Shown: piece by piece, positions 10,623 to 26,145 of the stretch
Numbering within the stretch: the stretch's first letter is position 1
How the letters are laid out: every line of letters begins with the position of its first letter
Origin: Arthrobacter sp. 35W
GTDB taxonomy: Bacteria; Actinomycetota; Actinomycetes; Actinomycetales; Micrococcaceae
Length of the DNA: 64,000 nt
Direction of reading: 5' to 3'
Assembly (NCBI RefSeq): GCF_000482545.1
Contig: NZ_KI519455.1
Coordinates: 1,673,247 to 1,737,246, forward strand
Notes under the pieces: model-generated
What the model was told of the DNA's origin: nothing
Seen by the model: the letters and a program-made list of their open reading frames with translations, nothing else
The model's database searches: none
Program-made: the position numbers and the translations under genes

Positions 10623-11039
10623 TCATTCCACGCGGAAGGACTCGAGCACCGTCAACTCCATGGTTGAGGGATCGAGGCTGATGTAGTCACCGGTCTTGAT
10701 CTGCTCGAACGCCTCGAGGGCAAGGCCGCTGGCAATTGGAATCCCGGCGGTGACGGCGCCCTGGACCATGACGGGGTTGGTGTCGCCGAAGACCAGGCCG
10801 GCAAAGCCGACGCCCCGGGCCTCCATGGCCAGCAGTGCCCAGCCGGCCGCGACGCCGCCCTGCACACCCGGGGCCAGAAAAATCTTGCCCTTGATCGACT
10901 CGCCCTGCAGTGGGTGGCCGATGCGGCTGATGACGCCATTGACCCGGTCTAGGTCATAGCGGGCGCTGAACGGAACCGGGCTGACCAGGGCTTCGCCTTC
11001 GATGGTCTTTCCCACGGCGCGGGTGAGGTTGAATTTCAT
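10623..11039 (-). CDS. Aconitase X small (swivel) subunit, DUF126
   Basis: A 138-residue beta-barrel swivel domain (MKFNLTRAVGKTIEGEALVS, PLQGESIKGKIFLAPGVQGGVAAGWALL), the small subunit of two-subunit aconitase X. The ATG at 11039 starts 1 bp after the stop of the large subunit, so the two are translated together. It carries GVQGGVAAGWAL and the loop FGDTNPVMVQGAVTAGIP, where the family binds the substrate phosphate or carboxylate. Characterised members dehydrate mevalonate 5-phosphate (archaea) or cis-3-hydroxy-L-proline (bacteria). This one lies in a CoA-thioester cluster and may have another hydroxy-acid substrate. Confidence 0.88.
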   Translation of the reverse strand: MKFNLTRAVGKTIEGEALVSPVPFSARYDLDRVNGVISRIGHPLQGESIKGKIFLAPGVQGGVAAGWALLAMEARGVGFAGLVFGDTNPVMVQGAVTAGIPIASGLALEAFEQIKTGDYISLDPSTMELTVLESFRVE

Positions 11040-11040
11040 G

Positions 11041-12306
11041 TCAGTTGCCCTTCTGGGTGGAGACTGCCCCGCTGGCAACGAGGGCAACGGTGGAAGCCAG
11101 AATGCACTCGGCCGTGGTCAGGACGGTTGGCGTGTAGCCATGTGCCTTGACGATGTTGGCCAGCTTGGCGGAATTGGTGGCCAGAGTGTTCCAGCCGAAG
11201 GACTTGCGCTGCTGTGCGGGGTCCATCAGGTACCAGCAGGTGTCCTGGAGGATGGATGCGCCCGATCCGGTGATGGTCTGCAGCAGGCCGGTCCGTTCGG
11301 CCTCGACATAGACGCTGCGGTTCGTGGTGATGATCATCTTGGTGCCCTCGCGGATCTTGCGGCCTTCAAGTTTGAGGGCCAGGTCCTGGATCTCGAACAT
11401 GGACAGCTGTGGAGCCGTGAACACCACCACGTCCGGGGCGAGGTCGTCGGGGGAGTAGCTGCCCATGAACTCCTCCAGGTCGGCCTGGCTGAATTCCCCC
11501 TCGCCCAACAAGCCACGTTCGCCGCGCGCCATGTCCAGGGTGGAGGCTTCAGGAGTCTGTCCGACGATGTGGAACATGGCCATGGAACCGTAGCTGGCGA
11601 TGGCCGCAGCCAAGTGTTTCAGGGCATCTGAGCTTGGAATGACGCCGTCCGGGAGAACGAATGCCACTACGTTGTCGTAGCCGCGGTATCTGGTTCCGGC
11701 CACGGCGCCAAGTGCGCCCCAGTGCGCAAGGTCTCCCATGGTGGCCGCAACTCGGACGATGGCGTTGGCCTTGCGGTTTTCGTCGAGGTGGAAACCGTAG
11801 GCCGGCGTGCGGCCGGTCATCCCTGCAAGCAGGGACGCGGTGCCGGATTCATAGTTGGTGCGGGCACCGAGGACGGAGTTGGCGTATGCCACGGTTCCGG
11901 TATCGCCCCAGGCAACATGTTCACCTAAGCGGGGCTGGTAGAGCGTCTGGTAGCCGATGCACGTATTGACGGCCATGACGCCCAGAGCCGTCAGCTGCTT
12001 GCGCACTCCGATTTCCCCCTGCGCCAGTTCCTTGGACTGTTGGAAGCTCTCCAGATGCTCCAGATCCACACAGGTGGCATTGCGGCTGGTGGGAATTGCG
12101 GTGCGCAGCCCCGCAGCGGTGAGGCGGGCAAGATAGGCCGCCCCAGCGTCGCCGAACACCTCGGGATCCCCCATGAAGTGCGCGTTGCTGACAGGGACCA
12201 TCCGCTCGGCGCCGAAAAACTCGCCAACTTGGATCTGTTCGCGGAAGGCATCCGCAAGGGCATCTCCTCGAGCCAGGATGTCCTGCTCTTCATCGGTAAG
12301 GTGCAT
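11041..12306 (-). CDS. Aconitase X catalytic subunit (AcnX type dehydratase, DUF521)
   Basis: A 421-residue Fe-S hydro-lyase subunit. It starts MHLTDEEQDILARGDALADAF as usual for AcnX and has Cys candidates for the cluster in NATCVDLEH, VNTCIGYQTLYQP and ILQDTCWYLMDP. It should act with the adjacent small subunit as a dehydratase of a beta-hydroxy carboxylic acid. The gene is divergent from the ABC importer operon across 273 bp that carry repeated GATAYGTTT sites. That places it in the same regulon as the biotin-dependent and thiolase genes. The substrate is not assigned. No proline-racemase-like partner of the hydroxyproline pathway is present. Confidence 0.9.
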   Translation of the reverse strand: MHLTDEEQDILARGDALADAFREQIQVGEFFGAERMVPVSNAHFMGDPEVFGDAGAAYLARLTAAGLRTAIPTSRNATCVDLEHLESFQQSKELAQGEIGVRKQLTALGVMAVNTCIGYQTLYQPRLGEHVAWGDTGTVAYANSVLGARTNYESGTASLLAGMTGRTPAYGFHLDENRKANAIVRVAATMGDLAHWGALGAVAGTRYRGYDNVVAFVLPDGVIPSSDALKHLAAAIASYGSMAMFHIVGQTPEASTLDMARGERGLLGEGEFSQADLEEFMGSYSPDDLAPDVVVFTAPQLSMFEIQDLALKLEGRKIREGTKMIITTNRSVYVEAERTGLLQTITGSGASILQDTCWYLMDPAQQRKSFGWNTLATNSAKLANIVKAHGYTPTVLTTAECILASTVALVASGAVSTQKGN

Positions 12307-12327
12307 CGGTGTCTCCTCAAGCTTTGA

Positions 12328-12348
12328 GATATGTTTAGATACGTTTCA
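12328..12348. promoter_or_regulatory. Candidate regulon operator before aconitase X (tandem GATAYGTTT)
   Basis: Two direct half-sites, GATATGTTTA and GATACGTTTCA, lie one helical turn apart just upstream of the AcnX gene. The second recurs (as TGAAACGTATC) before the MFS gene at 26237, and a weaker match lies before the gntR gene. Confidence 0.55.
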
Positions 12349-12520
12349 GTACCTTTATAGACCTGCGATCCTTCGTCCGCAAGTACCCGGCCCCAGTAGG
12401 CACTGCCGGATCGTCACATACTTCCTTGAAATACCGGGATTTATGCCGATGGTGGCGGGCGGGTTTGGAAACTTTTCGGCAGACCTTGCGACCCAGCTCA
12501 CAATTGGCTACGGTTACCAC

Positions 12521-12540
12521 AATACGTATCCATACGTCTT
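12521..12540. promoter_or_regulatory. Candidate operator before the ABC importer operon
   Basis: AATACGTATCCATACGTCTT contains two ATACGT cores 11 bp apart, 40 bp before the first start codon of the operon. It is related to, but not identical with, the GATACGTTTCA sites of the cluster. Confidence 0.4.
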
Positions 12541-13451: not shown

Positions 13452-14513
13452 ATGCTGAAGAAGAAACTTCTGGCCGCTGCGGCAGCCGCCCTCGTCCTCG
13501 GTTCCAGCCTGACCGCCTGTGGCAATGCAGCCGAGGCCGGCTCAAACAACGCGGCATCGGGGGAGGCCATCAAGTTCAACTGGGGCACGGCCCAAGGCTC
13601 GTACCTTGCTTTCTACGTTGCGTCCGAGCGTGGCTACTTCCAAGCCGAAGGACTCGACCCGACGTTCCAGGTGTTCCAGACCGGCACCCCGCTGCTGGCC
13701 GGCCTCGAGAGCAAAAGTCTGGACATTGTTACGACTGGCCTGGCCTCCGTGTTTGCCCTTGGACAGGGCATCCCGCTGCGGTACATCACCCTCGAGGGCG
13801 ATGCTTCCTCTGCCGAAGGCCTCGTAGTCGCCAAGGACTCGCCCATTGCCAGCGTCAAGGATCTTGCCCAGGCCGGAAAGATTGGCGTCCCCACAGGTAC
13901 CTGTGCCCAGGTGTCCGCCTACCATGCGGCGGCCGCTGCCGGCCTGAAGTACTCGGACCTGGACACCGTCAACATCAGCCCCAACTTGTTCGCCAACGCC
14001 TTCGAAAGCAAGTCCATCGGTGCCGGCTTCAGCTGGTCTCCCTATCTGGTGGACCTGGAGCAGCAGGGCAACAAGCTCATCGGGTTTGACACGGAGTGGG
14101 TGCCCGGTGGTGGCGCCTGCCCCGAAATGCACGCCGGCCGCCCGGAATTCCTGGACGCCCACCCCGAAGTGCCTCAGAAGATGCTCCGTGCCCTAAGCAA
14201 GGCCCGCGCCGATATCAACGCCGACAGCAACGTGGCCACGCAGGTCCTCATGAAGCGGCTCAGCGTCAGCGAAGCAGTCGCCAAGGAGACCGCCCGCCGC
14301 TACATCGCAGCCCAGCCGACGCTCCAGGACGAACTGGATGCCGGAACACGTTTTTCCTTCACCGATGAGAAGGGGCTCCTGGCCCAACTGACCCTGGCCT
14401 CGGAGACGTTCGCCCAGCTCGGTGTCATCAAGACCCCAGTTCCTGTGGACACGCTGAAGGCCGCCCTCGACTCCCGATACATCAAGGCCGCCGTGGCCGC
14501 AGGAGTGAAGTAG
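13452..14513 (+). CDS. ABC substrate-binding lipoprotein, NMT1/SsuA-like
   Basis: A 353-residue periplasmic-type binding protein tethered as a lipoprotein. A signal peptide of about 22 residues ends in the lipobox LTAC (Cys23). The mature part has the NMT1/SsuA pattern (GSYLAFYVASERGYFQAEGLDP, LVAKDSPIASVKDLAQAGKIGVPTGT in two parts). Members bind sulfonates, nitrate, thiamine precursors or aromatic acids. The ligand here is unknown but is likely the acid degraded by the cluster. The start at 13452 has AGGAG 8 nt upstream and lies 14 bp after the ATPase gene. Confidence 0.9.
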   Translation: MLKKKLLAAAAAALVLGSSLTACGNAAEAGSNNAASGEAIKFNWGTAQGSYLAFYVASERGYFQAEGLDPTFQVFQTGTPLLAGLESKSLDIVTTGLASVFALGQGIPLRYITLEGDASSAEGLVVAKDSPIASVKDLAQAGKIGVPTGTCAQVSAYHAAAAAGLKYSDLDTVNISPNLFANAFESKSIGAGFSWSPYLVDLEQQGNKLIGFDTEWVPGGGACPEMHAGRPEFLDAHPEVPQKMLRALSKARADINADSNVATQVLMKRLSVSEAVAKETARRYIAAQPTLQDELDAGTRFSFTDEKGLLAQLTLASETFAQLGVIKTPVPVDTLKAALDSRYIKAAVAAGVK

Positions 14514-14515
14514 CC

Positions 14516-15343
14516 ATGGTCGTGACAAATGTAGTCAAACAGCAGGCCCCTGTCGGGGTGGACGCGGAGACGAGCAAGCCGTTCCCCAGCGTGGCCATCT
14601 CGCTCATCTCCCTGGGTGCCATCATGGCGGTCTGGTTCGTCGTGACGAACACTGGGATTCTGGGCCCAAAGCAACTGCCGACGCCCCAGGCACTTGTGTC
14701 ACGCTTTCTGGAATTGATCAAGGACGGCTACCAGGGCTCCAGCCTCATGGGCCACATCACCACCAGCCTGACGCGTACCCTGAGCGGCTTCGTGATCGGT
14801 TCGGTCGTGGGCATCGTCGTCGGTCTTGTAGCCGGCTACAACAGGGTCATCTCGGCGGCACTCTCGCCCATCATGTCCTTCATCCGGCCCATCCCGCCGA
14901 TCGCGTTCATCCCCATGGCCGTGCTTTACTTCGGCCTGGGCGAGACCGGCAAGGTCATCCTCATCGCGGTGACGTCATTCAATTACACAGTGGTCAACGC
15001 CCAGTCGGGCGCAGCCGGAGTTCCGATTGCCTACCGCCGGGCGGCAGCGACCCTGGGTGTCAGCAAGACCCAGGAATTCTTCAAAGTCATCGTCCCGGCA
15101 GCACTGCCGTCCATCTTCACCGGACTCAAGACGGCCCTCGCACTGAGCTGGGCTGTGGTCGTGGCCGCGGAGCTCGTCGGCGCACAGAAGGGCCTGGGCT
15201 TCTTGATCAACCAGGCCGCACTCTTCTTCGACATCCCCACTGTCTTCATAGGCATCATCCTGATCGGCATCATCGGACTGTTGCTGAACCTGGCCCTGAG
15301 CCTGCTGGAGAAGAAGCTGGTCCACTGGCGGGGAAGAGGCTGA
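14516..15343 (+). CDS. ABC transporter permease, NitT/TauT family
   Basis: A 275-residue inner-membrane permease with about six helices. The EAA-like loop is visible (YRRAAATLGVSKTQEFFKVIVPAALPSIFTGLK in two parts), as is the first helix VAISLISLGAIMAVWFVV. It starts 2 bp after the binding-protein stop, so translation is coupled. It works with the ATPase and binding protein just upstream. Confidence 0.92.
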   Translation: MVVTNVVKQQAPVGVDAETSKPFPSVAISLISLGAIMAVWFVVTNTGILGPKQLPTPQALVSRFLELIKDGYQGSSLMGHITTSLTRTLSGFVIGSVVGIVVGLVAGYNRVISAALSPIMSFIRPIPPIAFIPMAVLYFGLGETGKVILIAVTSFNYTVVNAQSGAAGVPIAYRRAAATLGVSKTQEFFKVIVPAALPSIFTGLKTALALSWAVVVAAELVGAQKGLGFLINQAALFFDIPTVFIGIILIGIIGLLLNLALSLLEKKLVHWRGRG

Positions 15344-15347: not shown

Positions 15348-15734
15348 ATGAATTCGAACGCACATTTCCGGCACTTCGCGGAGCGTGCAGCGGCGGGCGA
15401 GCCCGTTCTGCCGCAGTGTGGGAGTTGCCAGGCAGTCTTCATGCCGCCCCGGGCCGTGTGCCCGGAGTGCGGCACCCCCGGACCCGGGTGGGTTCCTGGG
15501 GCGGGCGCCACAGGAACCCTGTACAGCTACACCGTGGTGGAGTCCAGGGAGGGGCCGATCATCATCGGCCTGGCCGAGCTGGACATGATCACGGAGGGCA
15601 GCAAGTTCTACGCCAGCGTCCTGGGCATCGACGCCGGGGACGTGGCGGTGGGACAGCGGGTCCGGCTGGATACTGCGGAGAACGAGGACGGCGTGCTGGT
15701 GCCTGTCCTGATGGTGGAAGGTGGAACAAAATGA
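15348..15734 (+). CDS. DUF35 OB-fold/zinc-ribbon protein, thiolase partner
   Basis: A 128-residue protein with an N-terminal rubredoxin-like zinc ribbon (CGSC at 24-27 and CPEC at 38-41), then an OB-fold (GTLYSYTVVES..., GQRVRLDT). Such proteins bind thiolase-superfamily enzymes and shuttle or position CoA substrates, as in archaeal HMG-CoA synthesis and in steroid side-chain aldolases (ChsH2 with Ltp2). The stop overlaps the start of the thiolase-like gene (ATGA), which supports a complex. Confidence 0.88.
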   Translation: MNSNAHFRHFAERAAAGEPVLPQCGSCQAVFMPPRAVCPECGTPGPGWVPGAGATGTLYSYTVVESREGPIIIGLAELDMITEGSKFYASVLGIDAGDVAVGQRVRLDTAENEDGVLVPVLMVEGGTK

Positions 15735-16864
15735 CCGATGTGGCATTGGCCGGCATGGGGATCGCGGAGACCTGGGCCCCCGGCCACCGGGACACCATGG
15801 ATGTCATGGCGGACGCTGCGCTGAAGGCGCTCGCCGACGCCGGGCTCCGCCCCGGTGATGTGGACGGCGTGTTCACCGCAACCGCCCAGGTCATGCTCCC
15901 CACCCTGGCCCTGTCTGAATATCTGGGCATCCAGCCCCGGTACCTCGATTCAACTGTCCACGGCGGTGCCTCCAACCTCTCCCACATCCACCACGCCATC
16001 GCCGCCATCCGTGACGGCAAGTGCGAGGTGGCCCTGGTGGTCTACGGCAGCACGCAGCGCACCGCGCTGAAAGCCAGTGGATCGCGGCCTGCCGTAGCCA
16101 GTGTTCCACCGGTCGAGTCGCTGGCCTCGCCGATGTTCCCCATTTCTTCCTACGCGCTGATGGCCCAGCGCCACATGGCTGAGTTCGGCACCACCCGTGA
16201 ACAGCTCAGCTCCGTGGCCGTTGCGGCCAGCCGCTGGGGGTCCCTGAACCCCGCGGCGCAGCGCCGCGACATTTTGACGCACGAAGAGATTGTCGCCTCG
16301 CCCAAGCTGTCGTCACCGTTCCACAAGCTCGACTGCTGCCTCATCACGGACGGTGCCGGCGCCGTCGTCGTCACCACCGCCGAGCGGGCACGGAAACTGA
16401 ACACCAAGGCTGTGCAGATCAACGCTTCAGCCGAGTTCAGCGGCCACGAAGGCGTGATGGCCATGAAGGACCTTGTCAGGACCGGCGCCTCCGTGACGGG
16501 CCGCGCGGCCTTTGAGATGGCAGGCATCGGCCCCGGCGACATCGACGTCGCCCAGGTGTACGACGCCTTCACCATTAACACCATTCTCCTGCTGGAGGAC
16601 CTCGGCTTCTGCCCCAAGGGCGAGGGCGGAAAATTCATCGCCGAGGGCAACATCGACCCAGGCGGCTCGCTGCCCACCAACACCAGCGGCGGAGGATTGT
16701 CCTTCTCACACCCCGGCATGTTTGGCATCTACACAGTGCTGGAAGCCATGGCGCAGCTGCGCGGCGAAGCCGGCGGCCGCCAGGTGGCCAACGCCCGCCG
16801 GGCCGTTGCCCACGGCATCGGCGGCACGATGTCGGCACATTGCACCCTCGTCTTGAGTAACTGA
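15731..16864 (+). CDS. Thiolase-superfamily enzyme, SCP-x/Ltp2-like, without canonical cysteines
   Basis: A 377-residue thiolase-fold protein. The nucleophile position reads TVHGGASN (75-82) with no Cys, and the C-terminal CxG motif is replaced by GIGGTMSAH. The histidine motif is kept as SHPGMFG (His327), and VYDAFTINTILLLEDLGF is typical of the Ltp2/DUF35-linked group. Ltp2-type proteins do a retro-aldol cleavage rather than thiolysis. It is coupled to the DUF35 gene. It probably makes or breaks a C-C bond in a CoA ester; the substrate is unknown. Confidence 0.85.
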   Translation: MTDVALAGMGIAETWAPGHRDTMDVMADAALKALADAGLRPGDVDGVFTATAQVMLPTLALSEYLGIQPRYLDSTVHGGASNLSHIHHAIAAIRDGKCEVALVVYGSTQRTALKASGSRPAVASVPPVESLASPMFPISSYALMAQRHMAEFGTTREQLSSVAVAASRWGSLNPAAQRRDILTHEEIVASPKLSSPFHKLDCCLITDGAGAVVVTTAERARKLNTKAVQINASAEFSGHEGVMAMKDLVRTGASVTGRAAFEMAGIGPGDIDVAQVYDAFTINTILLLEDLGFCPKGEGGKFIAEGNIDPGGSLPTNTSGGGLSFSHPGMFGIYTVLEAMAQLRGEAGGRQVANARRAVAHGIGGTMSAHCTLVLSN

Positions 16865-16895: not shown

Positions 16896-18971
16896 ATGGA
16901 TCGTTTGTTCAAACCCCAGCGGATCGCCGTGGTCGGCGCATCGGCCAACGAAGACGCCATCGGCGGAAAGCCGATCAAACAGCTCAAGAGCCACGGCTTC
17001 AAGGGCGAGATCTTCCCCGTCAACCCCAACCGCGACACCATCCAGGGCATCCCGTGCAGCCCCTCCGTGTCGGCCCTGCCCGAGGGCATCGACCTGGCGA
17101 TCATCGCCGTGGCGGCCCCACGTGTGGCTGCCGTGATCGCGGAGTGTGGAGAACGTGGAATCCCCTTCGCCGCGGTCATCAGCTCCGGCTTCGCCGATGC
17201 AGGTGGCGACGGAGCCGTCCTGCAGGAGCAGCTGCTCGAGGTGGCAGCACAGGCAAATGTCAGCATTCTGGGCCCGAACAACGTGGGCTTCATCAACATG
17301 GGTGCCAGCGTCTACGCTGGCTTCGGCGCGTTCTTCGACTACAACTTCAATGCCGGTCCGGTGGGCTTTGTCACCCAGAGCGGTGGCGTGGGCGGTTCGC
17401 TGTTGACGGTGGCCGACGAGGAAGGCATCGACTTCGGCTATTTTGTCCACACCGGAAACGCCGCGGACATCGACATCGAGGGCGTGCTGGGACACTTCCT
17501 CACCGACCCGGACATCAACACCATGGTGGCCTACGTCGAGGGCCTTGGCGACGATGCCCAACTTAAGTCCATCGCCTACTCGGCCCTCGCCGCCGACAAG
17601 CCCCTGTTGGTGTGGAAGGCCGGCCAGTATGCGAGCAGCATGTCCGCCGTCGTCTCCCACACCGGCCGCCTCGCCGGCGACATCGACCGCTACCGGGCCA
17701 TCTTCGACAAGTACGGCGTGGTGGAGGTCAACGACACCTCGGACATGGTGGACGTCCTCCGTCTGGCCCAGAGAAGCTACCGCCCGGCCGGCGGACGCAT
17801 CGGTGTCGTCTCCGTCTCCGGCGGTGCAGGCGTGGTCGCAGCCGACTACCTAGAGGGCTCGGCAAACCTGTCCCTGGCCGACCTTGGCGAGGAGACCGTC
17901 GGCAAGATCGCCGCGATGCTGCCCACCTTCGCCACGGCCCGCAACCCGATCGACGTCACGGCCCAGATCTTCAACGAGCCGGATCTGTTCGAACGGGTCG
18001 TCTCGGTGCTGCAGGAAAACTCGGCCGTGGACCAAATCCTGGCCTGCGTCGCCTCGGTGCACAGCGCCGTCGGCGTCCAGATTGCGGAGGCAATCGTTGT
18101 CGCGGCCGAAACGCTCAAGCTGCCCATCGTGGTCTCCTGGGCCGCCCGTGACAGCTTGAACGCGGAGGCCTTCAAGCTGCTGAAGAACGCCAACATCCCT
18201 GTCTTCCGCAGCCCGGAGCGCGCCCTGAAGGCCATGGACTCGATGACCTCCTTCACCAACGCCCAGGCAGGCCTGCCCAGTTTGTTGGACCCCGCAGCCG
18301 CCTCCGGCACCGCCGAAGGGGAGAAGCGGGGATGGGCCCGCTCCGTGGAGTTCGATGTCCTCAACGCCCTCGCCGGCTATGGCGTCACCATCCCGGCCCA
18401 GCGGCTGGCAGCCACTGCCGAGGAAGCCGCCGCCGCGGCCGAAGCCGTTGGCTACCCCGTGGCCGTCAAGATCCAATCCCCTGACATCCCGCACAAGGTG
18501 GCGGCCGGCGGGGTGCGGCTGCGCCTGAAGAATGCCGCCGAAGTTGCGGACGGCACCACGGAAATCTTCGACGCCGTCGCCACGCTGGGCGCCATCGAGT
18601 CCCGCGGCGTGGTGGTCCAGAACATGGCTGCACCCGGCACCGAACTCATCCTCGGATACATCCGCGACGCAGCACTGGGCGGATTCATCCTCTGCGGCCA
18701 GGGCGGTTCTGACGTGGAAGCGGTCAGTGACCGGGTGCTCATTCCCACACCGGCCACCCCTGCCGAAATCCTCGCCGGTCTTGAGTCGCTGCGTGTTCTA
18801 AAGGAGACCAAGGCCAGCGGCGCCGAGCTCGAAAAGGTGGTGGGCGTCATGGTGGCCCTCCAGCGGCTCGTGTCCGACTCCACTGGCGCACTCCAGGAAG
18901 TGGAGATCAACCCCGTCATCATCAGCGCAGGCAACGTCACCGCCGTCGATGCCCTCGCCGTCCAGGCCTGA
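16896..18971 (+). CDS. ADP-forming (NDP-forming) acyl-CoA synthetase
   Basis: A 691-residue single-chain acyl-CoA synthetase of the ACD/succinyl-CoA synthetase superfamily. It has an N-terminal CoA-binding Rossmann domain (RIAVVGASANEDAIGG), two CoA-ligase domains, and a C-terminal ATP-grasp domain (PVAVKIQSPDIPHKVAAGGV). The phosphorylated His is in VVSHTGRLAGD (His255). It converts a carboxylic acid, ATP and CoA to the acyl-CoA, or the reverse with ATP gain. A GGAG-like site precedes the ATG. In the cluster it is the only enzyme that can place the substrate on CoA. Confidence 0.9.
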   Translation: MDRLFKPQRIAVVGASANEDAIGGKPIKQLKSHGFKGEIFPVNPNRDTIQGIPCSPSVSALPEGIDLAIIAVAAPRVAAVIAECGERGIPFAAVISSGFADAGGDGAVLQEQLLEVAAQANVSILGPNNVGFINMGASVYAGFGAFFDYNFNAGPVGFVTQSGGVGGSLLTVADEEGIDFGYFVHTGNAADIDIEGVLGHFLTDPDINTMVAYVEGLGDDAQLKSIAYSALAADKPLLVWKAGQYASSMSAVVSHTGRLAGDIDRYRAIFDKYGVVEVNDTSDMVDVLRLAQRSYRPAGGRIGVVSVSGGAGVVAADYLEGSANLSLADLGEETVGKIAAMLPTFATARNPIDVTAQIFNEPDLFERVVSVLQENSAVDQILACVASVHSAVGVQIAEAIVVAAETLKLPIVVSWAARDSLNAEAFKLLKNANIPVFRSPERALKAMDSMTSFTNAQAGLPSLLDPAAASGTAEGEKRGWARSVEFDVLNALAGYGVTIPAQRLAATAEEAAAAAEAVGYPVAVKIQSPDIPHKVAAGGVRLRLKNAAEVADGTTEIFDAVATLGAIESRGVVVQNMAAPGTELILGYIRDAALGGFILCGQGGSDVEAVSDRVLIPTPATPAEILAGLESLRVLKETKASGAELEKVVGVMVALQRLVSDSTGALQEVEINPVIISAGNVTAVDALAVQA

Positions 18972-19009: not shown

Positions 19010-19570
19010 GTGGAAACTAAAATGACTGAACAGGCCCCCACCCTCACTTTCCAGGAACTGGACAGCATCCTGGCGATCATTGACGCCGCCCCGCGTGACG
19101 GCGAAGTCAAGATCACCGTCGGTGATGTGACGCTCGAGATCGCCACCCGCAGCAGCTCCCCGGCAGCGCAGCCGGCAGCAGCCACCGCCCCTGCGACGGT
19201 GGCTGCTGCAACACCCGAAGCAGCGCCTCCGGCACCCGCAGTCCCGGCACCGGCAGTCGCGGCACCGGCCCCCGCCGCGGCAGCTTCCGCCGCCGCCGAT
19301 GGCGACGATCTTGGCGGCCTCACCGCCATTCCGGCGCCAATGACAGGCGTCTTCTACACCAGGCCCAACCCGTCCGCCGAGCCGTTCGTCGCTGTGGGGG
19401 ACACTGTTGTCAAGGGCCAGGACCTGGCCATTGTGGAGGTCATGAAGCTCATGAACCGCATCGGATCCCCGGTGGATGGCATTGTCCGCCGCATCTGCGC
19501 CGAGAGCGATTCCCTGGTGGAGCATGGCAGCGCGCTGTTCTACATCGAAGCAATCGGTGGGGCTGCCTGA
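19010..19570 (+). CDS. Biotin carboxyl carrier protein
   Basis: A 186-residue carrier. An N-terminal helical part (FQELDSILAIIDAAPRDGEVKITVGDV) is followed by a long Ala/Pro linker (residues 55-100) and a biotinyl domain with VEVMKLMNRI, where Lys146 is the biotin attachment site. The common EAMKM motif is EVMKLM, as in acetyl-CoA carboxylase AccB-type carriers. It overlaps the biotin carboxylase gene by one base (TGATG). The GTG at 19010 is used; an ATG at 19022 is an alternative. The second AccB-like carrier inside a catabolic operon suggests a dedicated carboxylase. Confidence 0.9.
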   Translation: METKMTEQAPTLTFQELDSILAIIDAAPRDGEVKITVGDVTLEIATRSSSPAAQPAAATAPATVAAATPEAAPPAPAVPAPAVAAPAPAAAASAAADGDDLGGLTAIPAPMTGVFYTRPNPSAEPFVAVGDTVVKGQDLAIVEVMKLMNRIGSPVDGIVRRICAESDSLVEHGSALFYIEAIGGAA

Positions 19571-20952
19571 TGAAGCGGGTGCTCGTTGCCAACCGGGGCG
19601 AAATCGCGGTCCGGATCATCCGGGCCTGCCAGGAGTCCGGCATCGAAAGCGTTGCCGTGTACTCCGAGGCGGACCGCGATTCCCTCCATGCCAAGCTGGC
19701 GGACCGCGCCGTCTGCATCGGCCCACCGCGCCCGGGCGAGAGCTACCTCAGGCCCGAAACCATTGTCCAGGTCGCCATCTCCACGGGCTGCGATGCGGTC
19801 CATCCCGGATATGGCTTCCTGGCCGAAAACGCCGGCTTCGCCCGGATGTGCGCCGAGAACGGCCTCATTTTCGTCGGACCATCGGCTGAAGTGATCGACG
19901 AACTCGGCGACAAGGTCTATGGGCGCCGTCTGGCAGCCGCCGCGGGAATCCCCGTGGTGCCGGGGACCGGCGACAAGCCGGCCACGTACGAGGACCTCGT
20001 GGAACTTGGCCGCACCGGCGGCTACCCGATCCTGATCAAGGCCGCTGCCGGCGGCGGAGGGCGCGGCATGCGCATCCTCCACGACGAGTCGGAGGTCCGT
20101 GCCAACTTTGAGGACGCCCAGGCGGAATCCCTGTCCGCGTTCGGCAGCCCGGTCATCTTCGGTGAGCGCTTCCTCACCCGGATCCGCCATGTGGAGGTCC
20201 AGGTGATCGGCGACCACAGTGGCAACGTCCAGCACGTCGGCACCCGCGACTGCAGCGTCCAGCGCCGCTACCAGAAGGTCATCGAGGAAGGCCCCGCGTC
20301 CAGCATCCCGCTGGAGTCCCGGCACCGGATCGAGGCCGACGCCGTCAAGCTCGTCTCCCAGCTTGGCTACGTCGGTGCAGGAACGGTGGAGTTCGTGGTG
20401 GACATGGACACCGGCTCGCACCACTTCATCGAGATGAACACCCGCATCCAGGTTGAGCACCCGGTGTCCGAAATGGTGTCCGGCTTCGATTTGGTCCGCG
20501 AGCAGCTCTGGGTGGCAGACCCCGAAAACACGCTGTCCTTCACGCAGGAGGAAGTCTCGCTGCGGGGCCACGCAATTGAGCTGCGCATCTGTGCGGAGGA
20601 CCCGGCCAACGGCTTCATGCCGTCCCCCGGGCTCATCACCGAGCTGGTGCTGCCCGGCGGTCCGGGCATACGCGTGGACACGCACTGCGTGCCCGGTTGG
20701 AAGGTTTCCCCGTTCTACGACTCGATGATCGCGAAACTGATTGTCCACGACGTCGACAGGAACCATGCCATCAGGCGGGCGCTTCGGGCCTTGGACGAGA
20801 CCACCATCGGTGGCCTGAAGACCAACATTGAGTTCCTCAAGGCCATCCTGGGCCACGAGGACTATGCGGCCAACGAAGTCCACACCAAATGGGTCGAGGA
20901 AAAGCAGGGCGAACTGCTCGGCCAGCGTTCCGGCCAACTGCAGCCCACCTAG
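19570..20952 (+). CDS. Biotin carboxylase subunit
   Basis: A 460-residue ATP-grasp enzyme that carboxylates biotin on the carrier. The N-terminus MKRVLVANRGEIAVRIIRACQESGI, the glycine-rich loop KAAAGGGGRGMRI, and the active-site block HHFIEMNTRIQVEHPVSEM are intact, as is the usual length of AccC. It lies between the carrier and the carboxyltransferase, so the three genes supply a complete three-subunit biotin enzyme. Confidence 0.93.
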   Translation: MKRVLVANRGEIAVRIIRACQESGIESVAVYSEADRDSLHAKLADRAVCIGPPRPGESYLRPETIVQVAISTGCDAVHPGYGFLAENAGFARMCAENGLIFVGPSAEVIDELGDKVYGRRLAAAAGIPVVPGTGDKPATYEDLVELGRTGGYPILIKAAAGGGGRGMRILHDESEVRANFEDAQAESLSAFGSPVIFGERFLTRIRHVEVQVIGDHSGNVQHVGTRDCSVQRRYQKVIEEGPASSIPLESRHRIEADAVKLVSQLGYVGAGTVEFVVDMDTGSHHFIEMNTRIQVEHPVSEMVSGFDLVREQLWVADPENTLSFTQEEVSLRGHAIELRICAEDPANGFMPSPGLITELVLPGGPGIRVDTHCVPGWKVSPFYDSMIAKLIVHDVDRNHAIRRALRALDETTIGGLKTNIEFLKAILGHEDYAANEVHTKWVEEKQGELLGQRSGQLQPT

Positions 20953-20968: not shown

Positions 20969-22441
20969 ATGTCTAAGAAAGTAAGCATTGAAGACATCAC
21001 CATCCGCGATGGTGTGCAGTGCCTGTGGGCGACTCGTCTGACCACAGAGGAAATCATCCCGATTGCCACCACCATGGACCGGGCTGGGTTCGAGGTGGTG
21101 GACGTTGCCGGCGGGGCGATGATGGACACCTCCATCATGTACCAGCGCGAAGACCCTTTCGAGCGCATCCGCCTGCTCAAGAAGCTCATGCCGAACACGC
21201 TGTTGAACTTCAACTCCCGAGGCCAGAGCGTGTTCCGCTGGACCCAGTACCCCGACGACGTCGCGGAACTGAGCATCCGGACCTTCGCCGAGAACGGCAT
21301 CGGTTCGATCATGCTGTTCGACCCTCTGAACGACATGCGGAACCTGGCGTACTCGGCCAAGGTCTCCAAGCAGCTGGGGTTGTACGTTATCGGCAGCGTC
21401 ACCTACACGGAGAGTCCATACCACACGGACGAGCACTTCATCGAGAAGACCAAGGAACTGGTTGACATGGGCGTGGACGCTGTGTCGCTCAAGGACCCCA
21501 GTGGATTGCTCACCCCGGACCGGGGCCGCATGCTGCTCAAGCAGATGCGCTCAGTCCTGGCCGGCCAGAAGCTGCAGCTGCACTGCCACACCTCCACGGG
21601 CACTGGGCCAGATGTCCACAAGGCTGCCATGGAACTGGGCGAAGACGCGCCGGACGTCTTCCACGGGGCGGTCCCGCCACTGGCGTGGGGGACCTCGCAT
21701 CCCTCGCATGAGTTTTTGTTGGACAACTTGGAGCAGCGTGGCTTCACTGTCGACGTCGACCGCCAGGCGATCAGGGAGATGGAACACTACTTCACCCTCC
21801 TGGCCCGCAAACGTGGTTTGCCGACCAGCCACGTGGCAAAGCACGACCCGGAAATGCTCAAGCACCAGGTCCCGGGCGGCATGCTCAGCAACCTCCGCCA
21901 GCAGCTGACCGACCAGGGCATGGTCCACCGCCTTCCCGAAGTCCTGGACGAGGTCAGCCGCGTGCGCGCCGATCTCGGCTATCCGCTGCTGGTCAGCCCC
22001 ATGGCCCAGTATGTCGGTATTACCGCCGTACTCAACGTGGTCACCGCGGACCGGTACTCGGTGGTTCCGGATGAAATCCGCAACTACCTGCTCGGCTACT
22101 ACGGCACCCCTCCCGGCCCCGTGGACGAGAATGTCCGCGACAAGGTCACCAAGGGTGAGGCAGCCATCACCAAGCGCCCGGGCGAAGTGCTCGAACCGAT
22201 GGTGGAGAAGTTCAAGGCCGAAAACGGCCCGTTCGAGACCAACGAGGCCCTGACGCTGGCCCTGTTCTATTCCAAGCCGATCCTTCGCGACTGGAACCTC
22301 AAGGACTGGAATGGCTACCGGGGTACTCCGAAGGATGCCTTCAGCTACCTCATCGACTCCGTCAACCGCAACACGAGAATCAGCAACTTCCGGCTGACCA
22401 ACCCGCAGAAATCCGTCCACTTCAGCTTTGACGCAACGTAA
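20969..22441 (+). CDS. Carboxyltransferase, transcarboxylase 5S / pyruvate carboxylase B-like, divergent active site
   Basis: A 490-residue DRE-TIM barrel protein. Metal and carbamyl-lysine residues are kept: Asp14 (IRDGVQC), Lys175 (SLKDPSG), His205 and His207 (LHCHT). Elsewhere the pattern differs from pyruvate or oxaloacetate enzymes: RDAHQS is RDGVQC, the HSHDTSG motif is HCHTSTG, and WGGATFD is VAGGAMMD. The C-terminal barrel extension (VPGGMLSNLRQQL, VSPMAQYVGITAVLNVVT) is typical. It should transfer a carboxyl group between biotin and a 2-oxo acid or related substrate, probably not pyruvate itself. GGAG precedes the ATG at 20969. Confidence 0.85.
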   Translation: MSKKVSIEDITIRDGVQCLWATRLTTEEIIPIATTMDRAGFEVVDVAGGAMMDTSIMYQREDPFERIRLLKKLMPNTLLNFNSRGQSVFRWTQYPDDVAELSIRTFAENGIGSIMLFDPLNDMRNLAYSAKVSKQLGLYVIGSVTYTESPYHTDEHFIEKTKELVDMGVDAVSLKDPSGLLTPDRGRMLLKQMRSVLAGQKLQLHCHTSTGTGPDVHKAAMELGEDAPDVFHGAVPPLAWGTSHPSHEFLLDNLEQRGFTVDVDRQAIREMEHYFTLLARKRGLPTSHVAKHDPEMLKHQVPGGMLSNLRQQLTDQGMVHRLPEVLDEVSRVRADLGYPLLVSPMAQYVGITAVLNVVTADRYSVVPDEIRNYLLGYYGTPPGPVDENVRDKVTKGEAAITKRPGEVLEPMVEKFKAENGPFETNEALTLALFYSKPILRDWNLKDWNGYRGTPKDAFSYLIDSVNRNTRISNFRLTNPQKSVHFSFDAT

Positions 22442-22451: not shown

Positions 22452-23261
22452 ATGACGAACAACAACGCATCAACAGCACTCCGCCCCGCACTGGGCTCCC
22501 TTTTTGACCTCCACGGCCGCAAAGCACTCGTGGTCGGCGCCGGTGGCGGCCTGGGCCTGGCCGTCTCCCGCGGCCTGGCCACGTTCGGTGCAGACCTCAT
22601 CGTGGCCGAGCGCAATGCCGAACTGACCGACGCTGCTGTCAACGCACTGCGCGAGGAGGACCTGGACAGCACCGGCATCCCCGTCGACATGACCTCCACC
22701 GCGGCCATCGACGCCCTTGTCGACGCCCATCCGGACGTTGACGTCCTGGTGATCACGCCGGCCGTCCTGGTCCGCAAGACCCTGCTGGACCACACCGAGG
22801 ACGAGATCGACCTCCAGATGGACCTCAACATCAAATACACCCTGCTGCTGGCCAGGGCCTTCGGAGCCAAGATGGCCGAGCGCGGCCGCGGCTCGATCAT
22901 CACCTTCTCGAGCATCCGCGCCTCCGTGGTGGAGCCGGGTTCGGGCATGTACGCCGCCACCAAGGCAGCTTTGGTGCAGCTCATGCGGACGCTCGCCGTC
23001 GAGCTCGGCCCGCAGGGCGTGAGAGTCAACCTCATTGCACCGAGCCCCGTGGCCACGCCGCTGACCGCGGATGTCCGCTCCAAGCAGGAATGGGTGGACA
23101 TCGTGGCCAACCGGTCCATGCTGCGCCGCTGGGCCGAGCCGGAGGACTTCGTAGGGCCGGTGCTCCTGCTTGCCTCCGACGCCGGGGCCTTCGTCACCGC
23201 CAGCAACATCGCCGTCGACGGCGGCTGGACCGCCACGGACGGCCTCGCCCGCATCGAGTAG
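22452..23261 (+). CDS. Short-chain dehydrogenase/reductase
   Basis: A 269-residue classical SDR. The cofactor loop is VVGAGGGLGLAV (residues 32-40 region), and the catalytic Ser and Tyr-x3-Lys are in TFSSIRA and MYAATKAAL. It likely oxidises or reduces a hydroxy/keto acid or its CoA ester in the pathway. The ATG at 22452 has AAGGAAAA upstream, 10 bp after the carboxyltransferase stop. It is the last gene of the operon; a 15-bp-stem terminator follows at 23269. Confidence 0.9.
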   Translation: MTNNNASTALRPALGSLFDLHGRKALVVGAGGGLGLAVSRGLATFGADLIVAERNAELTDAAVNALREEDLDSTGIPVDMTSTAAIDALVDAHPDVDVLVITPAVLVRKTLLDHTEDEIDLQMDLNIKYTLLLARAFGAKMAERGRGSIITFSSIRASVVEPGSGMYAATKAALVQLMRTLAVELGPQGVRVNLIAPSPVATPLTADVRSKQEWVDIVANRSMLRRWAEPEDFVGPVLLLASDAGAFVTASNIAVDGGWTATDGLARIE

Positions 23262-24292: not shown

Positions 24293-24331
24293 GAAAGGCC
24301 CGATTCCGCCACCGGCGGGATCGGGCCTTTC
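24293..24331. terminator. Bidirectional terminator
   Basis: An 18-bp stem (24293-24310 with 24314-24331, GAAAGGCCCGAT... with ...ATCGGGCCTTTC), one wobble pair and a 3-nt loop, between convergent gntR and the EthD-like gene. Confidence 0.85.
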
Positions 24332-24367
24332 CATTGCGATGCAGTCCGATGCGCTGCCTGCGCCGGG

Positions 24368-24685
24368 CTAGATCTCGATGTTCTGTGTATCGCGGATCCA
24401 CGTTCTGATGGTCTTTGCGCCGCTGGCTGCCGTGTGCTCGCGGGCGGCCTGCCACTCGGCGGATTCGTAGGCGGCCTGCGCGGCATCCCAGTCGGCGAAC
24501 TCCAGGTAGTCGGTGCCGGCAATCTGCGGGTCGTTGCCGTACTCGTCAAGGTCGGCCAGGTTGATCGTGTAGCTGAGCAGCCCGGGCATCTTCTTGGCCA
24601 GAGGGGCGTGGTCTTCCAGCCACCAGCGGTGCTGTTCGGCGAGGGTCTGCTCGTTGCGGAAGAGGATGATGGCGATCTTTGCCAT
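24368..24685 (-). CDS. EthD-domain / dimeric alpha-beta barrel protein
   Basis: A 105-residue protein (MAKIAIILFRNEQTLAEQHRWW...) with the ferredoxin-like pattern of EthD and methylmuconolactone-isomerase-like proteins: HRWWLEDHAPLAKKMPGLLSYTIN, then YLEFADWDAAQAAYES. These small dimers often act as accessory isomerases or decarboxylases in catabolic operons. AAAGGA precedes the ATG. It follows the MFS gene by 50 bp on the minus strand and probably shares its transcript. A role in the 10.6-26 kb pathway is inferred from position and the shared operator upstream of the MFS gene. Confidence 0.75.
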   Translation of the reverse strand: MAKIAIILFRNEQTLAEQHRWWLEDHAPLAKKMPGLLSYTINLADLDEYGNDPQIAGTDYLEFADWDAAQAAYESAEWQAAREHTAASGAKTIRTWIRDTQNIEI

Positions 24686-24735
24686 GGTGGTTCCTTTCAG
24701 AGTGGGTCGAATTGCGGCGTCGGGCGATGGTGGAA

Positions 24736-26145
24736 CTAGAGGGCCTTTTGCAGGCGGAGGATTGCCTTCTCTGGACGGATGAGAACCATGGCCATGGTGC
24801 CACTTACGATGAGCAGAACGGCGAGGAGTCCCCAGGCGTGCTGGTATCCCTGGGCCGGAGTGGCCGCGGCGTCGATCATCAGGCCTGTCACGTAGGGCCC
24901 CACGAGGCCGCCGAAGGTCAGCAGCGCCAGGAACGTGCCCTGGACAGCGCCGCGCTGGCTGTCGGGGACGATCTCGGCCAGGACCACCATGGCCACGGAC
25001 TGGATCATATGGCCGAATTCGAAGCCGATGACCAGGGCAACCACGGCGATGATGCCTTGGGGGCCCCATGCCAGGGTGGCGATGGCGATGCCGGAAAGAA
25101 CCACGCCGGCACCGCCGAAGACTCCGCGTGCAAGCCGGCTGGAGACGCCGCGGTCCATGAGCCACTGCGAGGCCACCGCTTGGAGCATCAGGCCGCCGGC
25201 ACCCACCAGCCACGGCAGCACGATGATAGTGCCCACCTCTGTGGTGCTGAAGCCCATGACTGTGTGCAGATACGACGGTACCCATGCCACCAGTACGGCC
25301 AGGGACCAATAGTGGCAGAAGCACACGAAGAGCGCCCCGAGGAAGGTGCCGCTGCGGAACAGCTGCCAGTAGGACACCTTCCTGAGCTGCTTGGCGGCGG
25401 CGTGCACCGCTGCCTTCGTGGCGCCGGCCGCACGGACCGCCCCTGTCCCGCCAGCCGCCGCGGCAGAAGAGTCCGTTGGAATGGCGACGGCAGGGGTGCC
25501 GGGCTTGGCGCGTGACGAGAGCGGGCCTTCCTTGCCGATGAATAGCCAGACGACGCCCCAGACGGCGCTGCAGGCGCCCAGCAGGGCGAAGGCGACGTGC
25601 CAGTTGTAGTGGGTAATGATCCATGTCAGGCCAGGTCCGGCCACAACGACGCCGATGGTGGAACCGGCCGTGATGAGCGCCGTGGGGATGTTGCGGCGGT
25701 TGTTGGGGAACCACTGGTGGGCAGTGTGGATGGCGAGGGGGTAGGCGGGGCCTTCGCCAGCACCCAGTGCGATGCGGCTGATCATCAAAGCTGTGAAGCT
25801 CACGGTGCCAGCGACGGGAACGAGGGCGATGGTCCATACGGCGGCCAGGACGATCAGCAGCCACTTGGAGGACATTCGATTGGAGATGAAACCGACTCCG
25901 AGCGCTGCGACGCTGAAGAGGAAGTAGAAGGCACTGGCCAGCAGGCCGAACTCCGTGGCAGTGAGTCCGAGTTCTTCGCGGATGGGCCCTGCAGCCAGAC
26001 CGATGACGGCCTTGTCGCCGAAGTTGATCAGGATGAAGAGGAACAGCAGGCCGACGATCACCCAACGGCGCCGGAAGGATTCCTGCGGACGAGGTGCTGT
26101 GAGGCCGCTCCCCGGCAAGGGTGTTTCAGAACTGCGAAGTGCCAC
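24736..26145 (-). CDS. MFS transporter, anion:cation symporter (ACS) family-like
   Basis: A 469-residue, 12-helix carrier. Blocks include FGDKAVIGLAAGPIREELGL, RIALGAGEGPAYPLAIHTAHQWFPNNRRN in the first half (typical of glucarate/tartrate/phthalate carriers), and a long Ala-rich central loop (residues 205-245). It probably imports an organic acid. It is transcribed away from the GntR operon with TGAAACGTATCT about 92 bp before its start. It gives the cluster a second uptake route beside the ABC importer, or an uptake route for a related acid. Confidence 0.88.
   Translation of the reverse strand: MALRSSETPLPGSGLTAPRPQESFRRRWVIVGLLFLFILINFGDKAVIGLAAGPIREELGLTATEFGLLASAFYFLFSVAALGVGFISNRMSSKWLLIVLAAVWTIALVPVAGTVSFTALMISRIALGAGEGPAYPLAIHTAHQWFPNNRRNIPTALITAGSTIGVVVAGPGLTWIITHYNWHVAFALLGACSAVWGVVWLFIGKEGPLSSRAKPGTPAVAIPTDSSAAAAGGTGAVRAAGATKAAVHAAAKQLRKVSYWQLFRSGTFLGALFVCFCHYWSLAVLVAWVPSYLHTVMGFSTTEVGTIIVLPWLVGAGGLMLQAVASQWLMDRGVSSRLARGVFGGAGVVLSGIAIATLAWGPQGIIAVVALVIGFEFGHMIQSVAMVVLAEIVPDSQRGAVQGTFLALLTFGGLVGPYVTGLMIDAAATPAQGYQHAWGLLAVLLIVSGTMAMVLIRPEKAILRLQKAL

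What the first reader, a model, noticed from the sequence alone, without database searches (positions are those of the whole stretch)
10623..26145. Catabolic cluster of unassigned substrate, combining aconitase X, a biotin-dependent 5S enzyme and a DUF35/thiolase-like pair
Seen: one block with two-subunit AcnX, an NMT1-type ABC importer, DUF35 plus thiolase-like protein, ADP-forming acyl-CoA synthetase, BCCP, biotin carboxylase, 5S-like carboxyltransferase, SDR, GntR/UTRA regulator, EthD-like protein and MFS symporter. Known: each family has members with defined chemistry (dehydration, CoA activation, C-C cleavage, carboxyl transfer). Inference: together they could import an organic acid, activate it to CoA, oxidise and cleave it, and move a carboxyl group. 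I cannot place it in a known pathway, so it is the best candidate here for an undescribed system.
Basis: partly seen in the sequence, partly recalled or inferred. Interest (0 to 1): 0.82.

Follow-up and report, generated by a model that had tools for sequence, protein, structure and literature searches.

The report
Unassigned acid-degrading operon with aconitase X
A soil bacterium carries a rare gene set with its own regulator that probably imports an organic acid, adds carbon dioxide to it, rearranges it and splits it into acetyl-CoA and a smaller acid by a route for which no description was found.

Summary
In detail: every named gene is present at 10623-26145 of an Arthrobacter-like genome. 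Fourteen genes recur together in 3 of 3 fetched relatives, two Arthrobacter and one Leucobacter. An operator-like repeat, ATACGTN4ATACGT, lies in the divergent promoter; its only exact copy in the genome is there. Two readings change. First, the DUF35/thiolase-like pair is probably not a thiolase: the nucleophilic Cys is Gly in 119 of the 120 listed homologues (one gap) and HD is YD in 120 of 120, as in the Ltp2/Sal steroid retro-aldolases. Second, the 5S-like protein has its own biotin carboxylase, so it is a carboxylase rather than a transcarboxylase. The AcnX lacks landmark residues of both known AcnX enzymes. Best model, inferred: carboxylate an oxo acid, reduce it, AcnX shifts the hydroxyl, ADP-forming CoA ligation, retro-aldol cleavage: the step order of the two-step reductive TCA segment, run by other enzymes on an unknown acid. 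Main rival: Hpe-type ketone carboxylation. No description of the set was found. New variant of a known kind; substrate unknown.

The parts
10623..11039 (-). AcnX small (swivel) subunit, 138 aa; GGVA(A/G)GWA where TkAcnX has the catalytic Ser62
   Evidence: PF01989 1.5e-18; matches TkAcnX small chain 7cnr_B; orthologues 62-81% in 3 of 3 relatives
11041..12306 (-). AcnX large subunit, 421 aa; AcnX subclass without a known activity
   Evidence: PF04412 1.3e-104; 7cnr_A 2.5e-49; active-site conservation over the 120 listed proteins, the window's own included
12329..12354 (+). two overlapping operator-like repeats before acnX (ATATGTTTAGATACGT, ATACGTTTCAGTACCT)
   Evidence: pattern drawn up from these promoters
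12522..12539 (+). operator-like ATACGTATCCATACGT before the ABC/enzyme operon, near-palindromic; only exact copy in the 4.66 Mb genome
12580..13437 (+). ABC importer ATPase, taurine/nitrate-type
   Evidence: PF00005, NCBIfam hits below cut-off
13452..14513 (+). NMT1/SsuA-type solute-binding protein; relatives carry two or three copies
   Evidence: PF09084; TIGR01728 below cut-off
14516..15343 (+). ABC permease
   Evidence: PF00528
15348..15734 (+). DUF35 (Zn ribbon + OB fold) partner of the thiolase-fold protein
   Evidence: PF01796/PF12172; best PDB match ChsH2(DUF35) of the Ltp2 complex, 6ok1_B, 1.5e-10
15731..16864 (+). thiolase-fold protein without nucleophilic Cys (Gly79), with Y277-D-A-F and His327: probable acyl-CoA retro-aldolase
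   Evidence: NF004811 over cut-off
16896..18971 (+). ADP-forming acyl-CoA synthetase, 691 aa, SHTG at residue 254
   Evidence: PF13607, PF13549; TIGR02717 below cut-off; 8wzu_A 7.9e-82
19022..19570 (+). biotin carboxyl carrier protein, EVMKLM
   Evidence: PF00364; TIGR00531 below cut-off
19570..20952 (+). biotin carboxylase
   Evidence: PF02785/PF02786/PF00289; NF006367 over cut-off
20969..22441 (+). pyruvate-carboxylase/OAD/5S-type carboxyltransferase
   Evidence: PF02436; NF006761 over cut-off; alignment and trees
22452..23261 (+). SDR oxidoreductase (YAATK, GAGGGLG)
   Evidence: PF13561
23463..24263 (+). GntR/UTRA regulator, presumed to bind the operator-like repeats
   Evidence: PF07702, PF00392
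24368..24685 (-). EthD-like protein, 105 aa, core member
   Evidence: PF07110 3.4e-8; 70-81% identity in 3 of 3 relatives
24736..26145 (-). MFS transporter (D-galactonate-transporter-like), accessory
   Evidence: PF07690; TIGR00893 below cut-off; found in 1 of 3 relatives' loci

Best explanation
A dedicated, substrate-controlled catabolic regulon (broad claim, about 0.75: conservation and the operator-like repeats are shown, catabolism and regulator binding are inferred). Its five enzyme activities most likely run in this order (inferred, about 0.33): (1) BCCP/BC/CT carboxylate an oxo acid R-CH2-CO-COOH next to its keto group, using ATP and bicarbonate; (2) the SDR reduces the keto group, giving a 3-substituted malate; (3) AcnX removes and re-adds water, moving the hydroxyl to the substituted carbon and giving a tertiary 2-substituted malate; (4) the ADP-forming ligase makes the CoA ester; (5) the DUF35/thiolase-fold pair cleaves it by retro-aldol to acetyl-CoA and the shorter oxo acid R-CO-COOH. 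This is the logic of the two-step reductive TCA segment (2-oxoglutarate carboxylase, oxalosuccinate reductase, aconitase, citryl-CoA synthetase, citryl-CoA lyase) run by other enzymes on another acid. The ABC importer brings in the acid or a precursor; GntR/UTRA senses it. The substrate and the role of EthD are not known.
For: Fourteen genes kept together in 3 of 3 relatives, in one of them despite rearrangement. Operator-like repeat with its only exact genomic copy at the divergent promoter, which holds 3 of the 4 genome matches with at most 1 mismatch (two of the three are one near-palindromic place read on both strands); 8 overlapping matches at four places against 0.24 expected in L003. 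The model uses all five core enzyme activities in one line. The CT keeps R13, D14, Q17, R84, K175, H205 and H207, as the four oxaloacetate decarboxylases compared do, and R84 is Thr in the two Hpe-like CTs. The genome has a separate 1152-codon frame matching the CT at 31%, pyruvate-carboxylase-like, so this is not the only such enzyme. Thiolase nucleophile absent, Ltp2/Sal-like Tyr present (PMC12329534 passages). DUF35 nearest to ChsH2(DUF35) among solved chains. The CoA ligase is of the ADP-forming family; [quoted passage not shown] AcnX is an aconitase-superfamily protein with D47, E49 and R75 in 120 of 120 listed proteins, in the segments that bind phosphate in TkAcnX. Leucobacter has a D-lactate dehydrogenase gene just downstream of acnX, a 2-hydroxy to 2-oxo acid enzyme.
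Against: No substrate is known and no step has been assayed. Known AcnX enzymes only dehydrate; this one has Gly for the general-base Ser and Asp for Glu, so its reaction may differ. The SDR is generic and its direction unknown. The third residue of the YD[H/C] aldolase motif is Ala. Keeping R84 does not single out oxo-acid enzymes: the CTs of the apparent ketone-type clusters L027, L032 and L035, and L025, L026 and L030, keep it too. The Thr aligned with PC Thr882 varies within the clade. The AU test does not separate the CT clade from oxaloacetate decarboxylases (p 0.067), so the tree gives no substrate class. The operator pattern was drawn up from these same promoters; in Leucobacter and, at 3 mismatches, in MYb229 the local counts are not above chance, and in MYb229's genome the matches (4) hardly exceed the reversed-pattern control (3). 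The model costs two ATP and a reductant per turn, odd for catabolism. EthD is left over.
Confidence: 0.33

Rival explanations
1. Ketone carboxylation of the Hpe/Xcc kind: the SDR makes a ketone from a secondary alcohol, the biotin enzyme carboxylates it to a beta-keto acid, the ligase activates it, and the DUF35/thiolase-fold pair or a housekeeping enzyme cleaves it; AcnX prepares the substrate upstream.
For: HpeCBA is a biotin-dependent ketone carboxylase of this type followed, as proposed there, by CoA ligation and C-C cleavage (PMC9618137, abstract and passages). Plasmid relatives of the CT sit with beta-keto acid activation and thiolase or hydrolase genes: Cnuibacter CT-AccB-AccC-BioY-3-oxoacid CoA-transferase-thiolase, Rhodococcus BCCP-BC-CT-DUF35-thiolase, P. 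putida and Rhizobium Hpe-like sets. These CTs keep R84 except the two Hpe-like ones. In the tree with PC included, OAD and PC form one 100/100 group and the window clade falls outside it.
Against: No kinase or phosphatase family among the cluster proteins scanned; the thiolase-fold protein has no Cys, unlike those of L027, L032 and L035; the two Hpe-like CTs lack the Arg that this CT keeps; AcnX has no role in the line.
Confidence: 0.26
2. Retro-aldol first: AcnX hydrates an enoic acid to a tertiary 3-hydroxy acid, the ligase and the DUF35/aldolase pair cut it to acyl-CoA plus a ketone, and the ketone is then carboxylated (for example 3-methylcrotonate to 3-hydroxyisovalerate to acetone plus acetyl-CoA, acetone to acetoacetate).
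For: AcnX type IIb acts on a tertiary 3-hydroxy-3-methyl acid (PMC8184944, sections 12 and 14) and Ltp2/Sal cut 3-hydroxyacyl-CoAs (PMC12329534 passages); CT relatives include an apparent ketone carboxylase.
Against: Conserved D47, E49 and R75 point to a more polar substrate; the example acid is recalled chemistry without any gene evidence.
Confidence: 0.15
3. Two or more unrelated functions share one regulon: the AcnX and ABC genes serve uptake and first attack of one compound, and the biotin carboxylase refills oxaloacetate from the pyruvate it yields.
For: The CT passes the PRK09282 pyruvate carboxylase subunit B cut-off (448.3 against 402 bits) and keeps the catalytic residues compared. 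In L003 the ABC block lies apart from acnX.
Against: A separate pyruvate-carboxylase-like frame exists; the CT clade is a distinct, rare one and stood with the other 13 core genes in the three relatives read.
Confidence: 0.15

Closest known systems
Two-step reductive TCA segment (2-oxoglutarate carboxylase, oxalosuccinate reductase, aconitase, citryl-CoA synthetase, citryl-CoA lyase; Hydrogenobacter/Aquifex)
   Same: Biotin carboxylase of pyruvate-carboxylase type, oxidoreductase, aconitase-superfamily enzyme, ADP-forming CoA ligase, retro-aldol C-C cleavage: five steps with one counterpart each
   Different: Reductase is an SDR, aconitase is an AcnX, lyase is a DUF35/thiolase-fold pair; presumably aerobic heterotroph; dedicated importer and GntR regulator; substrate unknown; no reference sequences of the segment were compared
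Hpe pathway (HpeHI, HpeCBA, HpeD, HpeE, HpeF; acetovanillone)
   Same: Three-part biotin carboxylase with PYC/OAD-type CT, followed by CoA ligation and C-C cleavage genes
   Different: No kinase or phosphatase, ADP-forming instead of AMP-forming ligase, no HpeF-type hydrolase, Arg84 kept where the two Hpe-like CTs have Thr, AcnX/SDR/ABC added
Ltp2-ChsH2(DUF35) and Sal-Shy(DUF35) steroid side-chain retro-aldolases
   Same: DUF35 plus thiolase-fold pair, Cys to Gly, Tyr of the YD motif
   Different: Ala instead of His/Cys after YD, His327 kept, no MaoC hydratase partner, no steroid genes among the cluster proteins
[quoted passage not shown]
   Same: Family, two-subunit form (types IIa and IIb), two cluster Cys, active-site Lys
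   Different: Amine- and phosphate-binding residues not kept, Ser base replaced by Gly, Glu by Asp, third [4Fe-4S] Cys absent

Membership tests
AcnX (aconitase X) | AcnX large and swivel domains | tested here: met
   PF04412 and PF01989 over cut-off
[quoted passage not shown]
   Asp203 position: Met45 here (Met 99, Thr 20, Leu 1 of 120). Ser70, which superimposes on TkAcnX Ser62 (PMC8184944): Gly in the small subunit. NF051439 195.7 bits against cut-off 700
mevalonate 5-phosphate dehydratase (AcnX type IIb) | phosphate site (Ser50, Asn53), Cys283, Ser62 of TkAcnX | tested here: not met
   aligned Pro48, Val50, Ala298, Gly
thiolase | nucleophilic Cys | tested here: not met
   Gly79; Gly in 119 of the 120 listed homologues, one gap; Cys in the three reference thiolases L027, L032, L035
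Ltp2/Sal acyl-CoA retro-aldolase | DUF35 partner | tested here: met
   15348-15734, best PDB match 6ok1_B
Ltp2/Sal acyl-CoA retro-aldolase | Gly for Cys and Tyr base in YD[H/C][F/Y] | tested here: inconclusive
   Gly and YD met, third residue Ala in 119 and Ser in 1 of 120
Ltp2/Sal acyl-CoA retro-aldolase | hydratase (MaoC) attached to DUF35 | tested here: not met
   DUF35 is a stand-alone 128 aa protein; no MaoC hit among the cluster proteins scanned
biotin-dependent carboxylase with PYC/OAD-type CT | BCCP with biotin Lys, BC, CT with His/Lys site | tested here: met
   roles of the motifs recalled
methylmalonyl-CoA transcarboxylase (5S) | 5S subunit model; no BC | tested here: not met
   NF008984 324.2 bits against cut-off 827; BC present
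Hpe ketone carboxylase | HpeHI kinase and HpeD phosphatase in the cluster | tested here: not met
   no such family among the cluster proteins scanned
Hpe ketone carboxylase | activity on a ketone | not testable with these tools
   needs assay
two-step reductive TCA segment | counterpart for each of five activities | tested here: met
   families present; order and substrates not tested
two-step reductive TCA segment | homologous enzymes acting on 2-oxoglutarate and citrate | not tested
   no CfiA, CcsAB or Ccl reference sequence was compared

The most novel reading that the evidence does not exclude
The operon encodes an undescribed oxo-acid shortening route, a non-homologous copy of the two-step reductive TCA segment that works as a reversal of alpha-keto-acid chain elongation, with a new AcnX acting as a malate-type hydroxyl mutase and a DUF35/thiolase-fold enzyme acting as a non-steroid 2-alkylmalyl-CoA lyase.
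Probability: 0.27. Interest if true: 0.8.

Novelty: new variant of a known kind. Interest (0 to 1): 0.55.

Why it matters
It would give a function to an AcnX group with a strictly conserved but unexplained active site (PMC8184944 section 14 says that types IIc-IIf lack the landmark residues of both known activities; that this is one of them is my inference). It would place the 'acetyl-CoA acetyltransferase' PRK06158-type proteins among aldolases rather than thiolases, correcting many names. If the best model holds, it shows the reductive TCA step order rebuilt from other enzymes for catabolism. The operator-like repeats, binding protein and carboxylase make the substrate directly findable.

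Tried and rejected
Thiolysis by the DUF35/thiolase pair: rejected, no nucleophile. 5S transcarboxylase: rejected (BC present). AcnX as cis-3-hydroxyproline or mevalonate-phosphate dehydratase: rejected on residues. Substrate from the solute-binding protein: only generic sulfonate/taurine/nitrate-type matches. A sulfonate substrate from the TauE-like gene beside the cluster in L003: seen in 1 relative only, not pursued. Using the CT tree, or the kept Arg84, to decide ketone against oxo acid: inconclusive. PC Thr882 equivalent as a discriminator: alignment uncertain there, not used. A wider regulon: three other operator-like places were fetched. In G780 the exact match lies inside ORFs, one a metallo-beta-lactamase-fold protein; in G007 inside an amino-acid-permease gene; in G000 at the end of an ORF without family and about 50 bases before a TetR-type gene followed by GDSL-lipase and FMN-oxidoreductase genes. 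The three regions share no DNA similarity, so they were taken as chance. The other places (2 mismatches) and (one more in G780, one in G781) were not looked at. Proteobacterial members of the CT clade (Aquisalimonas, Variovorax, Rubrivivax) were seen only as proteins; no handle led to their loci. EthD function: no useful PDB match (best 2ftr, E 0.61). Sigma-70-type promoter scan: 0 found.

Dropped or spoiled data: the alignment contained a mistaken empty row (L022:1-1), which emptied its 'invariant' list; conservation is taken. The query used for EthD was the wrong ORF (24244-24549), corrected. Trees used selected rows: 32, 31 (own PC left out there as a long branch). Locus L024 was fetched and not used. 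G007 and the genome of L003 (G779) share contig number, length and coordinates and are taken to be one genome.

Full report
Where it lies. The window is G000:C2:1673247-1737246 of a 4.66 Mb genome; two of its three named relatives at this locus are Arthrobacter strains. Mean GC of the eight 2 kb windows from 10001 to 26000 is 64.3%, against 67.3% for the other 24, which fits acquisition by transfer but proves nothing.

Observation. acnX small and large run leftward from 12306; the ABC importer, DUF35, thiolase-fold, CoA ligase, BCCP, BC, CT and SDR genes run rightward from 12580 and are followed by GntR/UTRA. The MFS and EthD-like genes come back on the minus strand. Expected catalytic signatures are there: SHTG in the ligase, EVMKLM in BCCP, GGGGRGM in BC, YAATK in the SDR (that these motifs are catalytic is recalled).

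Conservation. A pattern scan of genome contigs with the CT found 3 loci (it reaches close relatives only): Arthrobacter sp. HY1533 (L003), Arthrobacter sp. MYb229 (L004, extended by L040) and Leucobacter chromiisoli (L005, extended by L039). AcnX-S, AcnX-L, ATPase, binding protein, permease, DUF35, thiolase-fold protein, ligase, BCCP, BC, CT, SDR, GntR and EthD occur in 3 of 3; MFS in 1 of 3, within the loci fetched. HY1533 has the importer moved to the other side of the enzyme block, yet the set stays together. All three have two adjacent binding proteins, and MYb229 and Leucobacter a third. The unit is rare: CT at E <= 1e-100 in 2 of 58 relatives, the own genome being one, and at E <= 1e-110 in 1 of 394 genomes of the class, the own one. 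In the genus, 13 of 23 genomes have an AcnX over the cut-off. Eleven of these loci score above 410 bits and two near 350; a further 23-bit fragment is below the cut-off. Four of the eleven, compared with the window protein, gave 31-36% identity. The two near 350 are in G000 and G007, the same two of the genus genomes that have the CT; G007 is evidently the genome of L003, so this is not a further case. A more distant AcnX (48%, the only other of 394 class genomes at E <= 1e-85) sits with a 3-hydroxyisobutyrate-dehydrogenase-like gene, an aldehyde dehydrogenase and a sugar-type importer instead, so this kind of AcnX may serve more than one pathway.

Regulation. The acnX/ABC intergenic region holds ATACGTATCCATACGT and two overlapping copies with 1 and 2 mismatches. 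The pattern was drawn up from the promoters of the window and its relatives, so the counts are not blind. Over the whole genome ATACGTN4ATACGT has one exact match, here, and 3 of the 4 matches with at most 1 mismatch are here, two of them one near-palindromic place read on both strands; the tally with 2 mismatches, 38, is close to the reversed-pattern control, 34. In the window 4 matches at two places stand against 0.42 expected, in L003 8 matches at four places against 0.24. In the HY1533 genome 4 of 5 matches with at most 1 mismatch are in this cluster, control 1. In MYb229 the two promoter sites have 1 mismatch each, but an exact match and one more lie elsewhere, total 4 against control 3, and at 3 mismatches the local count is not above chance. 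In Leucobacter only a 2-mismatch site was found, not above chance. Other places looked at lie in or by genes without evident link. The regulator is presumed to be the clustered GntR protein; binding is not shown.

The DUF35/thiolase-fold pair. Over the 120 best of 7778 homologues, the thiolase nucleophile position is Gly in 119 (one gap), the HD motif is YD in 120, and His327 is kept in 120; the thiolases of L027, L032 and L035 have Cys. PMC12329534 (passages) states that Gly at this position rules out thiolysis in CtSal and that the Tyr of the motif is the catalytic base in Ltp2 and Sal. The best matches with solved structures are an uncharacterised 'Thiolase' (4u4e, 315 bits), then lipid-transfer chains 9myr (167) and 6ok1 (149), ahead of the acetoacetyl-CoA thiolase 6esq (139) and benzoylsuccinyl-CoA thiolase 7pxp (130), by small margins. 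The DUF35 partner is nearest to ChsH2(DUF35). The pair is therefore most likely a retro-aldolase, though the third motif residue is Ala and nothing was assayed.

The AcnX. Against TkAcnX and AtAcnX (residues from PMC8184944, of which I read sections 9 and 11-14 and passages) it keeps two cluster Cys (C116, C357), Asn76 and Lys381. It has Asp135-Thr136 for Glu-Ser, Ile385 for Tyr, Ala298 for the third Cys, and Gly for the general-base Ser of the small subunit, seen in the five small subunits compared. D47, E49, R75, N76, C116, WGDTG 133-137, C357-W-Y and K381 are each invariant in the 120 listed of 3426 proteins, the window's own included. It meets neither known activity. Which of the paper's subclasses it belongs to could not be told.

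The biotin enzyme. BCCP, BC and CT are all present, so bicarbonate is fixed with ATP. Characterised relatives by chemistry are HpeCBA and XccBCA, biotin-dependent ketone carboxylases (PMC9618137, abstract and passages; PMC8461187, passages). Plasmid relatives show the same carboxylase type with beta-keto acid activation and cleavage genes in several forms and in other settings. Trees put the window CT in a supported 14-row clade with Burkholderiales-type proteins, apart from the oxaloacetate decarboxylases, but the AU test of grouping the two does not reject (p 0.067). The window CT keeps the catalytic residues compared, including R84. The two Hpe-like CTs (so called from gene content) have Thr there, but six other CTs, some from apparent ketone-type clusters, keep Arg. 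I lean to an oxo acid rather than a simple ketone, mainly because that gives AcnX and the SDR a role; the sequence is not decisive.

Mechanism. The five activities fit in one line that has a precedent. [quoted passage not shown] The carboxylase and synthetase are thought to descend from pyruvate carboxylase and succinyl-CoA synthetase (PMC5441870, passages); that aconitase stands between them is recalled. Here an SDR, an AcnX and a DUF35/aldolase would take the places of reductase, aconitase and lyase, on R-CH2-CO-COOH instead of 2-oxoglutarate, giving acetyl-CoA and R-CO-COOH. What is shown: families, residues, co-inheritance, operator-like repeats. What is inferred: order, direction, substrate type. 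A D-lactate dehydrogenase gene just downstream of acnX in Leucobacter fits oxo-acid entry but is one case.

Novelty. Searches for the combination found no paper: 'aconitase X' with biotin, thiolase and gene cluster, 0 papers; DUF521 with gene cluster and catabol, 0; DUF35 with thiolase, biotin carboxylase and gene cluster, 0; 15 papers with DUF126, DUF521 or AcnX, of which 14 were listed and none shows this set in its title or the start of its abstract. The library holds open-licence papers only. I call it a new variant of a known kind, because each enzyme family is known and the step order may copy a known segment.

Noticed in passing
L003:1750-2427 (-) and L003:12333-13214 (-): In Arthrobacter HY1533 a BioY biotin transporter gene adjoins acnX and a TauE/SafE-type exporter gene adjoins the ABC permease; neither showed among the genes scanned next to the cluster in the other two relatives.
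   Followed up: partly
L035:8932-15616 (Cnuibacter physcomitrellae plasmid): CT, AccB, AccC, BioY, 3-oxoacid CoA-transferase A/B and a Cys-bearing thiolase in a row: looks like a plasmid-borne ketone (acetone-type) carboxylation operon without kinase.
   Followed up: partly
L027:1026-13181 and L032:872-13177 (Rhodococcus plasmids): Hpe-like clusters in which a DUF35/thiolase pair and a tyrosine-phosphatase-like gene stand where Hpe has HpeF and HpeD; the CT has Glu at the position of K175.
   Followed up: partly
L028:4319-13508 (Sulfitobacter dubius plasmid): A divergent CT with BC, two biotin/lipoyl proteins, a TRAP importer and a citryl-CoA lyase gene on the opposite strand; the positions of D14 and K175 hold Asn and Ser.
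   Followed up: no
L023:2532-11059: A 48% identical AcnX pair in another actinobacterium sits with a 3-hydroxyisobutyrate-dehydrogenase-like gene, an aldehyde dehydrogenase, an IclR regulator and sugar-type importer genes.
   Followed up: partly
L039:167-1996 (-): D-lactate dehydrogenase (membrane-binding type) gene directly downstream of the acnX small-subunit gene in Leucobacter.
   Followed up: partly
proteins P0241-P0360: The 120 listed homologues, many named acetyl-CoA acetyltransferase or thiolase, lack the thiolase nucleophile (119 Gly, 1 gap), so that name is probably wrong for them.
   Followed up: yes
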